A stretch of DNA of 64,000 bases from Streptomyces fumanus (lineage in GTDB: Bacteria > Actinomycetota > Actinomycetes > Streptomycetales > Streptomycetaceae): positions 496,001-560,000 of the forward strand of contig NZ_BNBI01000002.1 of the NCBI RefSeq assembly GCF_014655295.1, in the 5' to 3' direction. Shown in pieces: positions 18,854 to 28,535 of the stretch. The first letter of the stretch is position 1. Every line of letters begins with the position of its first letter. The notes beneath the pieces are model-generated. The model had not been told where the DNA came from, searched no databases, and saw only the letters and a list, made by a program, of their open reading frames with translations. The translations under genes were made by a program, and so were the position numbers.

Positions 18854-18907
18854 TGATCCACAGCAAATCCAGTTATCCACAGCGGAATTGGGGACGGCTG
18901 TGGAGAA
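18854..18907. promoter_or_regulatory. Small cluster of DnaA-box-like sequences
   Basis: TTATCCACA (18873-18881) is a perfect DnaA box. TGATCCACA (18854-18862) and TGTGGAGAA (18899-18907, reverse TTCTCCACA) each have one mismatch. All lie within 54 bp, next to parS site 4. Confidence 0.6.
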
Positions 18908-24906: not shown

Positions 24907-25731
24907 TCAGCCGTCGCCGAGCAGCTCCTCCAGTACCACCGCGATCCCGTCCTCGTCGTTCGAGGACGTCACCTCGTCCGCCACCGCCTTCAGCTCGGCG
25001 TGGGCGTTGGCCATCGCCACGCCCCGGGCCGCCCAGGCGAACATCGGGACGTCGTTGGGCATGTCGCCGAAGGCGATCGTGTCCGCCGCCTTCAGCTTCA
25101 GCCGGCGGGCCGCCAGCGACAGCCCGGTGGCCTTGGACAGGCCCAGGGGGAGCAGCTCGACGATGCCGGCCCCGGCCATGACGACCGTGACGAAACCGCC
25201 CGCGGTCCGCCGGGCCACCTCGGCCAGTTGGTCGTCCGACAGCGTCGGATGCTGGATGTAGATCTTGTTCAGCGGCGCGGACCACAGGTCGGACGCGTCG
25301 GTGAACGGAGTCGCCGGCAGCGACGCGCCGACCTGGTACCCGGGGCCGACCAGCACCTCGCCGTCCAGCCCGTCGCGGCTGGCGGCCAGGTACAGCGGGC
25401 CCGTCTCCGCCTCGATCTTGGCCAGCGCCACCCCGGCGAGCTGCCGGTCCAGCGTGACCGAGGTCAGTAGCCGGTGCTCCCCGGCGTGGTACACCTGCGC
25501 GCCCTGCCCGCAGACGGCCAGGCCGTCGTACCCGAGGTCGTCCAGGACGTGCCGGGTCCAGGGGACCGCGCGGCCGGTGACCACGATGTGGGCGGCGCCC
25601 GCCGCGGTGGCCGCGGCGAGCGCGTCACGGGTACGCCGCGACACCGTGTGGTCGGTGCGCAGCAGCGTCCCGTCCAGATCGGTGGCGACCAAGCGGTACG
25701 GGAAGCCCGTGCCGGCGGGGGCGTCGCTCAC
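24907..25731 (-). CDS. HAD-superfamily (Cof-type) phosphatase coupled to serS
   Basis: A 274-aa protein with motif [13 protein letters not shown], motif II VTGR, motif III Lys in LGLSKATGL and motif [15 protein letters not shown]. It is a paralogue of the 16.7-kb HAD gene. The GTG start at 25731 overlaps the serS stop (GTGA), so it is translationally coupled to seryl-tRNA synthetase. The substrate is unknown. A link to serine phosphate metabolism is tempting but unsupported, because SerB-type enzymes belong to another HAD subgroup. Confidence 0.88.
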
Positions 25732-27005
25732 TTGGCCACCGGCTCCAGGATCTCCCGCCCGCCCAGGTACGGACGCAGCACCTGGGGCACCCGCACCGAG
25801 CCGTCGGCCTGCTGGTGGTTCTCCAGGATCGCCACGATCGTGCGCGGTACGGCGCACAGGGTGCCGTTGAGCGTGGCGAGCGGGCGGACCTGCTTGCCCT
25901 CGCGGACCCGGATCGACAGGCGGCGCGACTGGAACTCGGTGCAGTCCGAGGTCGAGGTCAGCTCGCGGTACTTGCCCTGGGTCGGGATCCACGCCTCGCA
26001 GTCGAACTTGCGCGCGGCCGAGGAGCCGAGGTCACCGGAGGCCACGTCGATCACCCGGAACGGCAGCTCCAGCGAGGTCAGCCACTGCTTCTCCCACTCC
26101 AGCAGGCGCTGGTGCTCGGCCGCCGAGTCCTCGGGGAGGACGTAGGAGAACATCTCGACCTTGTCGAACTGGTGGACGCGGAAGATGCCCCGGGTGTCCT
26201 TGCCGTGCGAACCGGCCTCGCGGCGGAAGCAGGGCGAGAAGCCCGCGTAGCGCAGCGGCAGCCGGTCGGCGTCCAGGATCTCGTCCATGTGGTAGCCGGC
26301 CAGCGCGACCTCGGAGGTGCCGACCAGGTACAGGTCGTCCTTGTCCAGGTGGTACACGTCCTGGGCGGCCTGGCCGAGGAAGCCGGTGCCGCCCATGGCC
26401 TGCGGGCGGACCAGCGCCGGGGTGAGCATCGGCGTGAAACCGGCGGCGGTGGCCTGGGCGATCGCCGCGTTGACCAGGGCCAGCTCCAGGAGGGCGCCGA
26501 CGCCGGTCAGGAAGTAGAAGCGCGATCCGGAGACCTTGGCGCCGCGCTCGACGTCGATGGCGCCGAGCCGCTGGCCCAGCTCCAGGTGGTCCAGGGGCTC
26601 GAAGCCCTCGGCGGCGAAGTCGCGGATGGTGCCGTGCGTCTCCAGCGTGACGAAGTCCTCCTCGCCGCCCACGGGGACGTCGGGGTGGACCAGGTTGCCG
26701 AGCCTGGCGAGCAGGGCCTGGGTCTCCGCGTCGGCCGCGTCGCGCTCGGCGTCGGCGGCCTTGACGTCGGCGGCGAGCTGGCTCGCGCGCTTGAGCAGCT
26801 CGGCCTTCTCGTCGCCGGTGGCCTTGCCGATGAGCTTGCCGAGGCCCTTCTGCTCGGAACGCAGCTCGTCGAAGCGGACGCCGGACGACCTGCGCCGTTC
26901 ATCGGCGGCGAGGAGGGAGTCGACGAGCTCGACGTCCTCTCCACGGGCGCGCTGCGACGCACGCACACGGTCGGGGTCCTCACGGAGCAGGCGAAGGTCA
27001 ATCAC
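25728..27005 (-). CDS. serS: Seryl-tRNA synthetase
   Basis: A 425-aa class II synthetase, full length. The N-terminal long coiled-coil arm (about 30-105) binds the tRNA-Ser variable arm. Class II motifs are visible: motif 2 around [20 protein letters not shown] and motif 3 near the end ([20 protein letters not shown]). The start is a GTG ([14 protein letters not shown]). The 597-bp spacer upstream holds a DnaA-box cluster. It is co-transcribed with the HAD gene through a 4-bp overlap. Confidence 0.97.
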
Positions 27006-27602
27006 GCGGCCAAGGCTACCGGTGCGAGGTGACGGCGTTCGACTCCCTATTGCCGGGCGCCGGTCAAGCCGGTTCGTCCCATTCGCCGGAACGGTGGAGG
27101 ATTCGGCGGGGGATTGACCCGATTCCCTTGTGCGGAAGGGGACTTGGGGGCGCGCCGTCCACAGGAATCCACAGTCGCGGAAAGTTATCCACAGGCTGTG
27201 CGAAAGATCTGTGGACTGCCGAAACGATCATTCCGAATCGGACATCCGGGGTGAACAATGGACGAAGAATTCTTCTCCCAAACCCGCCACGGGCCCACTT
27301 TCGAGTGGGAACGCGTCCCTCCGGAGGATGGCGGGCAAGAAACAGGTGGACGAGGGGTGACCTGGAGACCTGTGGACGAAGATGTGCCCTGTGGGCCGAT
27401 TTGTCGACTGGATGGCGGTTCGTTGTCGACTTGTCCCCAGGTCGAGAAGCGGACCTGTGGATAACTTCTGTGGATAACCAAAATCAGCAGATACGACGGT
27501 CGGATCCGCCGGAGCCATAGGACTCACCGGACCCATAGGACCCACCGGGCCCATAGGACCCACCAGCCCCACCGGACCCGTAGGTCTCGGTCACCCCGGC
27601 GG
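27006..27602. other. 597-bp spacer upstream of serS
   Basis: Low-GC for this chromosome in its middle part. It contains the DnaA-box cluster described separately and a short repeat CCCATAGGACCCACCGG in 3-4 copies at about 27511-27585 near the pheA end. No convincing gene is present; the overlapping short frames are repeat artefacts. The serS promoter must lie here. Confidence 0.7.
27155..27477. promoter_or_regulatory. DnaA-box cluster (3 perfect boxes plus several degenerate)
   Basis: Perfect TTATCCACA boxes lie at 27185-27193 (+), 27456-27464 (-) and 27469-27477 (-). The last two are 13 bp apart. One-mismatch boxes are at 27371-27379 (reverse TCGTCCACA) and 27431-27439 (TTGTCCCCA). Two-mismatch boxes are at 27155-27163, 27165-27173 and 27210-27218. 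The density far exceeds chance for GC-rich DNA. The segment could titrate DnaA or regulate serS; it does not look like oriC, since no dnaA/dnaN genes adjoin. Confidence 0.7.
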
Positions 27603-28535
27603 TCAGAACCGCCCGTCCTGGCACCGCGCGACCCAGTCCGCCGCCGCCACGAACTCCTCGTCGGACGTCCCCGGCAGCGTCGGACGCACCGCGGACGGCT
27701 CCACGCCCGCCCGCGGGTACGAACCGAGGAACCGCACCTGGAGGCAGATCCGCTTCAGCCCCGTCAGGGCCTCGGCCATCCGCCGGTCGGAGATGTGCCC
27801 CTCGGCGTCGACGCAGAAGCAGTAGTTGCCGATGCCCGCGCCGGTCGGCCGGGACTGGAGCAGCATCAGGTTGATGCCCCGGGTGGCGAACTCGCCCAGC
27901 AGGTCACGCAGCGCGCCGGGGTGGTCGTCGCGCTGCCACAGCACGACGGAGGTCTTGTCGGCACCGGTCGGCGCGGCCGGCCGGGCGGGCCGGCCCACCA
28001 GCACGAACCGGGTCTGGGCGTTCTCCGCGTCGTGGATGCCGGCCTCCAGCACCTCCAGTCCGTACCGCTCGGCGGCGAACTCACCGGCGAAGGCCGCGTC
28101 GTACCGGCCCTCCTGGACCAGCCGGGCGCCGTCCGCGTTGGAGGCGGCGGACTCCCAGACGACATCGGGGAGGTGGGTCCTGATCCAGTTGCGCACCTGC
28201 GGCTGGGCGACCGGGTGGGCGGTGACCGTCTTGATCTCCGACAGCTTGGTGCCGGGGCGGACCAGCAGCGCGAAGGTGATCGACAGCAGCACCTCGCGGT
28301 AGATCATCAGCGGCTGCCCGGCGACCAGCTCGTCGAGGGTGGTGGTGACGCCGCCCTCCACCGAGTTCTCGATCGGCACGAACGCTGCCTCGGCCTCGCC
28401 GCCGCGCACCGCGTCCAGCGCGGACTGCACGGACACGTACGGGACCAACTGGCGGGTCGCCGCCTCCGGAAGCGTCCGCAGGGCGACTTCGGTGAAGGTG
28501 CCTTCAGGGCCGAGATACGCGTAACTGGCTGGCAT
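27603..28535 (-). CDS. pheA: Prephenate dehydratase
   Basis: A 310-aa protein. The catalytic domain (about 1-185) has AYLGPEGTFTE at the N-terminus and the FVPIENSVEGGVTTTLD segment; the conserved ARF-type motif appears as NAQTRFVLVG. A C-terminal ACT domain (about 200-280, KTSVVLWQRDDHPGALRDLL and ESRP-like LQSRPTG) binds phenylalanine for feedback inhibition. It converts prephenate to phenylpyruvate. It is a monofunctional enzyme without a chorismate mutase domain, as is usual in actinobacteria. The ATG lies at 28535. Confidence 0.96.
   Translation of the reverse strand: MPASYAYLGPEGTFTEVALRTLPEAATRQLVPYVSVQSALDAVRGGEAEAAFVPIENSVEGGVTTTLDELVAGQPLMIYREVLLSITFALLVRPGTKLSEIKTVTAHPVAQPQVRNWIRTHLPDVVWESAASNADGARLVQEGRYDAAFAGEFAAERYGLEVLEAGIHDAENAQTRFVLVGRPARPAAPTGADKTSVVLWQRDDHPGALRDLLGEFATRGINLMLLQSRPTGAGIGNYCFCVDAEGHISDRRMAEALTGLKRICLQVRFLGSYPRAGVEPSAVRPTLPGTSDEEFVAAADWVARCQDGRF

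What the first reader, a model, noticed from the sequence alone, without database searches (positions are those of the whole stretch)
27155..27477. DnaA-box cluster outside oriC, upstream of serS
Three perfect TTATCCACA boxes plus at least five near-boxes occur in 320 bp of low-GC intergenic DNA. DnaA-box clusters away from oriC titrate DnaA in E. coli (datA), and I recall a comparable cluster in S. coelicolor whose removal increased initiation. Coupling to serS could also link protein synthesis to replication.
Basis: partly seen in the sequence, partly recalled or inferred. Interest (0 to 1): 0.6.

Follow-up and report, generated by a model that had tools for sequence, protein, structure and literature searches.

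The report
Conserved DnaA-box cluster near Streptomyces origin
A 320-base stretch about 94 kb from the replication origin of a Streptomyces chromosome carries a conserved set of binding sites for the replication initiator DnaA; it is most likely the local copy of a known element that soaks up DnaA and restrains replication, and in a relative a signal-sensing regulator is reported to bind there too.

Summary
Three perfect TTATCCACA boxes and nine weaker ones lie in window 27155-27477, between pheA and serS, about 94 kb from the box-dense stretch beside dnaA (oriC). In 580 kb around dnaA it is the top-scoring box cluster, just ahead of oriC and a cluster at C2:403 kb. All 80 closest serS loci carry it, 79 with two convergent cores exactly 25 bp apart; 17 of 20 loci from other genera of the family have two or more perfect boxes, 0 of 34 outside. 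It is most likely the ortholog of the S. coelicolor cluster whose deletion raises initiation (Smulczyk-Krawczyszyn 2006; not held, the name D78 is recalled). Coupling to serS is not supported: in 8 genomes another gene separates cluster and serS, while the cluster keeps its geometry beside pheA. New lead: an S. coelicolor study lists the serS upstream region as an EMSA-confirmed ScbR2 target with serS expression unchanged, and its predicted site falls inside this cluster, over a weak box. That an antibiotic-sensing receptor touches the DnaA sink is untested. Verdict: a member of a known kind with one testable extension.

The parts
27155..27477 (.). DnaA-box cluster, whole element
27469..27477 (-). 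strong box B1 TTATCCACA; tandem with B2, 13 bp apart; conservation 0.89
   Evidence: tandem core spacing of 13 bp in 61 of 80 relatives
27456..27464 (-). strong box B2 TTATCCACA, mean majority fraction 0.99 over 81 aligned rows
27431..27439 (+). weak box TTGTCCCCA, conservation 0.96; in 580 kb found only in the oriC stretch, upstream of dnaA, and here
27423..27431 (+). conserved near-box TTGTCGACT, conservation 0.90
27401..27409 (+). conserved near-box TTGTCGACT, conservation 0.88
27371..27379 (-). weak box TCGTCCACA, conservation 0.66
27345..27353 (-). weak box TCGTCCACC, conservation 0.82
27336..27363 (-). counterpart of the possible ScbR2 binding site printed for S. coelicolor serS (26 of 28 identical); overlaps the weak box 27345-27353
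   Evidence: PMC4595836 Table 2; placed
27210..27218 (-). weak box CAGTCCACA, partner of B3 in the convergent 25-bp pair; core conserved, first three bases variable
27185..27193 (+). strong box B3 TTATCCACA, conservation 0.99
27165..27173 (+). weak box GAATCCACA, conservation 0.67
27155..27163 (+). CCGTCCACA, the counterpart of a fourth box that is a perfect TTGTCCACA in many relatives
25728..27005 (-). serS, seryl-tRNA synthetase, downstream gene
27603..28535 (-). pheA, prephenate dehydratase, upstream gene; the cluster lies beyond its 3' end
   Evidence: Pfam PDT and ACT

Best explanation
It is an origin-proximal DnaA sink, most likely the ortholog of the S. coelicolor cluster that restrains replication. 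DnaA would occupy the strong boxes at both ends (27456-27477 and 27185-27193) and spread cooperatively over the weak boxes between them. Because the cluster is about 94 kb from oriC it is copied soon after initiation, so the number of sites doubles early and free DnaA falls, which delays a second initiation. Shown here: the sites, their conservation, fixed geometry, nearness to dnaA, and independence from serS. Inferred: DnaA binding at this locus, cooperativity, titration, and the effect on initiation.
For: Top-scoring box cluster in the 580 kb examined around dnaA (score 11, with C2:403298 and the oriC stretch at 10; my weights). TTGTCCCCA occurs three times in 580 kb: oriC stretch, upstream of dnaA, and here. 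80 of 80 closest serS loci have at least two perfect boxes (41 four, 31 three, 8 two); 79 of 80 have the convergent 25-bp pair. Listed 9-mers average 0.86 majority fraction, the rest of the cluster 0.66, the spacer toward pheA 0.22. Two or more perfect boxes in 17 of 20 loci of other genera of the family, in 0 of 34 outside. serS lies 76-131 kb from dnaA in 10 other Streptomyces. 18 of 60 and 15 of 58 perfect boxes of two one-contig chromosomes lie within 100 kb of dnaA, 1.3 expected. Two papers report the S. coelicolor precedent (passages).
Against: No binding or deletion data for this species. The 2006 paper could not be read, so identity with its cluster D78 rests on recall. PMC4285127 lists TTGTCCACA as the high-affinity S. 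coelicolor box, while the strong boxes here are TTATCCACA. The 80 loci are the best of 572 relatives from a capped scan, so they favour close kin. The DNA between cluster and serS start is as conserved (0.68-0.71) as the non-box DNA of the cluster. In other genera 3 of 20 loci have no perfect box within 1.4 kb of serS and 6 of 20 lack the 25-bp pair.
Confidence: 0.8

Rival explanations
1. A DnaA-dependent control element of serS that couples protein synthesis to replication.
For: It lies upstream of serS in most of the family examined; the nearest box ends about 150 bp before the serS start codon, and the DNA in between is fairly conserved (0.68-0.71).
Against: 8 of 10 examined g7/g8 loci have a deacetylase-like gene between cluster and serS while the cluster keeps its geometry next to pheA; in G073 (g19) boxes lie about 30 bp from the pheA match and about 1.8 kb from serS. 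serS fold change 0.947 in the ScbR2 table.
Confidence: 0.07
2. A DARS-like site that reactivates DnaA by nucleotide exchange instead of sequestering it.
For: A convergent pair followed by tandem boxes (27210, 27185, 27165, 27155) recalls the order of boxes in the E. coli DARS2 region (scan).
Against: Spacing differs: 25, 20 and 30 bp here against 14 and 12 bp in the MG1655 region (box assignment mine). The S. coelicolor precedent is negative control.
Confidence: 0.05
3. A second, auxiliary replication start.
For: Its box score rivals that of the oriC stretch.
Against: A box-dense stretch already stands beside dnaA; G+C is 57%. I did not look for an unwinding element.
Confidence: 0.03
4. Chance accumulation in low-G+C spacer DNA.
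For: The spacer is lower in G+C than the window.
Against: Resampling of the same spacer gives 0.01 perfect boxes against 3; two or more perfect boxes also upstream of serS in 13 of 16 other genera of the family.
Confidence: 0.01

Closest known systems
Streptomyces coelicolor origin-proximal DnaA-box clusters (H69, H24, D78; Smulczyk-Krawczyszyn et al. 2006; cluster names and details recalled, paper not held)
   Same: Box cluster outside oriC, near oriC, same genus. The 28 bases printed from the S. coelicolor serS upstream region match here at 26. The three top non-oriC clusters in 580 kb lie beside a rhomboid gene, before dnaB, and before serS, which fits the recalled cosmids.
   Different: Another species; affinity and deletion effect untested here; that D78 is the serS cluster was not confirmed from a text.
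E. coli datA
   Same: Non-oriC DnaA-box locus that lowers initiation; two papers call the S. coelicolor clusters similar or analogous to it (passages).
   Different: datA needs an IHF site (passage) and promotes hydrolysis of DnaA-bound ATP (start of abstract); no IHF-type site was sought here; neighbours differ.
E. coli DARS2
   Same: Convergent and tandem boxes in one intergenic region.
   Different: Spacing 14 and 12 bp against 25, 20 and 30 bp here; opposite effect.
B. subtilis oriC-proximal DnaA-box clusters (Okumura et al. 2012; cited; paper not held)
   Same: Near oriC, restrain initiation, per the citing papers.
   Different: Sequence and geometry not compared.

Membership tests
Streptomyces origin-proximal DnaA-box cluster (D78 type) | several strong DnaA boxes in one short non-oriC stretch | tested here: met
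Streptomyces origin-proximal DnaA-box cluster (D78 type) | close to oriC | tested here: met
   about 94 kb from the box-dense stretch beside dnaA; dnaA-serS 76-131 kb in 10 other Streptomyces
Streptomyces origin-proximal DnaA-box cluster (D78 type) | same locus as S. coelicolor D78 | tested here: inconclusive
   28 bases printed for SCO3961 match this cluster at 26; that D78 is this locus is recalled; paper not held
Streptomyces origin-proximal DnaA-box cluster (D78 type) | binds DnaA strongly; deletion raises initiation | not testable with these tools
   needs bench work; repression of untimely initiation is reported for S. coelicolor clusters (passages)
datA | IHF-dependent stimulation of DnaA-ATP hydrolysis | not testable with these tools
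   no IHF-type site was sought
DARS | core of three closely and regularly spaced boxes | tested here: not met
   25-bp convergent pair here, 14 and 12 bp in the MG1655 DARS2 region; box assignment is mine, DARS1 was not scanned
serS regulatory element | stays next to serS | tested here: not met
   separated from serS by a gene in 8 of 10 g7/g8 loci

The most novel reading that the evidence does not exclude
The cluster is a signal-gated DnaA sink: the antibiotic-responsive receptor ScbR2 binds in its middle, over a weak DnaA box between the two strong ends, and changes how much DnaA it holds. Secondary-metabolite signals would then act on replication and aerial growth through this site, in parallel with the ScbR2-AdpA-oriC route.
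Probability: 0.15. Interest if true: 0.72.

Novelty: new member of a known kind. Interest (0 to 1): 0.42.

Why it matters
It extends an element reported in one species to most genera of its family, gives it a fixed grammar (strong ends, conserved weak sites, a 25-bp convergent pair), and separates it from serS. It also joins it to an existing ScbR2 binding record: the ScbR2 paper's main text does not contain the word DnaA, and the only held paper with ScbR2, DnaA and Streptomyces together was a transcriptome study seen in the listing. If ScbR2 does act there, the open question of how Streptomyces ties replication to development and antibiotic production becomes directly testable at one 28-bp site.

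Tried and rejected
A conserved RNA hairpin in the middle of the cluster (suggested by the window sequence): consensus folding of 81 aligned sequences gives about zero energy on both strands; rejected. Rfam: three hits at E up to 10, none near its gathering score. Plasmid records: one short hit to the tandem-repeat spacer only. Papers naming D78 with DnaA and Streptomyces: one, and there D78 is an amino acid. SCO3961 and SCO3962: one held paper each. My first delimiting of the intergenic region cut some loci short and was replaced by a fixed 850-bp stretch. DARS1 was fetched but not scanned. The box lists were capped, so only G003 was listed in full there; G001 and G048 were rerun.

Full report
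WHAT IS THERE. The window lies in a Streptomyces genome (its serS is 82-94% identical to the 80 relatives, 79 of them titled Streptomyces and one 'Actinobacteria bacterium') at C2:496001-560000 of an 8.15-Mb assembly. Between pheA (27603-28535, minus strand; Pfam PDT and ACT) and serS (25728-27005, minus strand) is a 597-bp spacer. It holds three perfect TTATCCACA boxes at 27185 (+), 27456 (-) and 27469 (-), and 12 sites in all with at most two mismatches to TTRTCCACA, against 2.04 in resampled copies.

RARITY. The genome has 47 perfect TTRTCCACA (reversed-pattern control 13). In the 580 kb of contig C2 that I scanned (of 663 kb), the best three 350-bp windows, with my own weights of 3 for a perfect and 1 for a one-mismatch box, are this cluster (11), C2:403298-403647 (10), and C2:428996-429345 (10), which lies beside dnaA and which I take to be oriC (dnaN was not checked). 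Next come C2:465827-466176 (6), in front of dnaB, and C2:514550-514899 (5), which is the group at window 18854-18907. The weak box TTGTCCCCA occurs three times in 580 kb: in the oriC stretch, upstream of dnaA, and here. Twelve of the 47 boxes lie within 100 kb of oriC, 1.15 expected.

CONSERVATION. All 80 have at least two perfect boxes in the 850 bp upstream (41 four, 31 three, 8 two). The usual order, read toward serS, is two forward boxes 13 bp apart, a gap of about 260 bp, then two reverse boxes 30-31 bp apart. A forward TCCACA core stands exactly 25 bp before a reverse core in 79 of 80. Its first three bases vary while the core stays, so it looks kept as a weak site (inference). Of six more divergent Streptomyces loci (of the 45 same-genus genomes), 5 have two or more perfect boxes and 6 the 25-bp pair. 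Of 20 loci covering all 16 other genera of the family (20 of its 51 other-genus genomes). Of 34 loci outside the family (14 of the 15 same-order genomes, one left out because its serS was split; 20 of the 56 genomes outside the family), 0 and 0. The 25-bp pattern with one perfect box occurs in 45 of 61 family genomes and its backward control in 0 of 61; in G073 that match is far from serS, and in G080 no true serS was found. Against: the non-box DNA between cluster and serS is about as conserved (0.68-0.71) as the non-box DNA inside the cluster (0.66).

POSITION. serS lies 76-131 kb from dnaA in 10 other Streptomyces, on the same side and strand, and 67-158 kb away in four other genera of the family, with the relative orientation inverted in two (G103, G076); 272 kb in one genome outside the family. 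In the one-contig chromosomes G001 and G048, 18 of 60 and 15 of 58 perfect boxes fall within 100 kb of dnaA (1.3 expected each). The only places there with three perfect boxes in 350 bp are the serS cluster and one 19-23 kb beyond dnaA on the other side; in this genome the second is 26 kb beyond dnaA.

NOT A serS SWITCH. For all 9 genomes of genus g7 and the one of g8 that one search drew, I fetched the pheA-serS interval. In 8 of 10 a gene on the opposite strand separates cluster and serS. It is similar (57-61%) to, or in G062 is, a protein with the Pfam polysaccharide deacetylase domain. In all 8 the first core site lies 10-180 bp past the pheA match and the 25-bp pair is intact, 1.0-1.2 kb from serS; the other 2 (G103, G109) lack the extra gene. 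In G073 (g19) boxes lie about 30 bp past the pheA match and 1.8 kb from serS, with another geometry. In G076 (g6) and G063 (g9) boxes occur on the other side of pheA, not between pheA and serS; these are results against strict conservation.

HOW IT PROBABLY WORKS. The strong ends would load DnaA and the weak sites between them would extend the complex; the site is copied early after initiation and doubles the sink. E. coli work argues that boxes concentrated near oriC suit titration (PMC12371093, abstract and one section read). Two papers state that S. coelicolor clusters repress untimely initiation, one calling them analogous to datA, both citing Smulczyk-Krawczyszyn 2006 (PMC4585315 and PMC5742627, passages). 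From memory only: that paper names clusters H69, H24 and D78, finds DnaA affinity for D78 about eightfold that for oriC, and reports more initiation and earlier aerial mycelium when D78 is deleted; serS lies on cosmid D78. The paper is not held.

A NEW LEAD. PMC4595836 (abstract and start of the introduction, section 4, figures and tables, and passages) lists sco3961 (serS) among ScbR2 targets confirmed by EMSA in S. coelicolor, with a possible site of 28 bases and a fold change of 0.947. That site matches the window at 27336-27363 with 26 of 28 bases, and L011 with 27. It covers the weak box 27345-27353, in the middle of the cluster. 44 of 80 relatives match it at 20 or more bases, 36 do not; the maximum for shuffled sites was 18; 1 of 20 other-genus loci and 0 of 34 outside loci reach 20. 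Cautions: the block holds a DnaA-like core, so its conservation cannot be credited to ScbR2 alone; the site is a motif prediction, and the footprint figure concerns sco6268; the ChIP-seq had 491 ScbR2 peaks, spread along the chromosome, and 42 promoters were confirmed; the authors themselves note that binding need not change the adjacent gene. The scbR2 mutant forms aerial hyphae early. AdpA, whose gene is a ScbR2 target, reduces access of DnaA to oriC, and mutation of its oriC sites gives more frequent replication and faster aerial growth (PMC3411110, abstract). ScbR2 acting at the DnaA sink would fit but is untested. The window's genome has four genes above the ScbR-family cut-off.

VERDICT. 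A real, conserved, origin-proximal DnaA-box cluster, most likely the ortholog of a known S. coelicolor element. The serS link is dropped. The ScbR2 overlap is the part worth bench time.

Noticed in passing
window 18854-18907: A small box group (TGATCCACA, TTATCCACA, TTCTCCACA). In G001, G004, G006, G012 and G014 a perfect convergent 25-bp pair stands 9-11 kb from the serS start, in G048 8.4 kb; here, 8 kb from serS, the pair is imperfect and 26 bp apart.
   Followed up: partly
G000 C2:403298-403647 (L003) and C2:465827-466176 (L006): Two further DnaA-box clusters near oriC, one beside a rhomboid gene (and a small ORF that I read as crgA from memory), one before dnaB; perhaps the recalled H69 and H24 clusters.
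   Followed up: partly
G073 contig C1, e.g. L204, L205, L207: This family member has 320 perfect TTRTCCACA (control 9) against 44-64 in six other genomes; in the stretches read many stand in tandem units of about 76 bp with a CCCCTG...CAGGGG inverted repeat. A genome this full of DnaA boxes is odd.
   Followed up: partly
window 27401-27409 and 27423-27431: TTGTCGACT twice, 0.88-0.90 conserved; 2 of only 3 copies in 580 kb. May be weak DnaA boxes or a site for another protein.
   Followed up: no
window 27501-27579: Tandem repeat (18-bp unit, 3.9 copies) between pheA and the cluster; that spacer is the most variable part of the interval in relatives.
   Followed up: no
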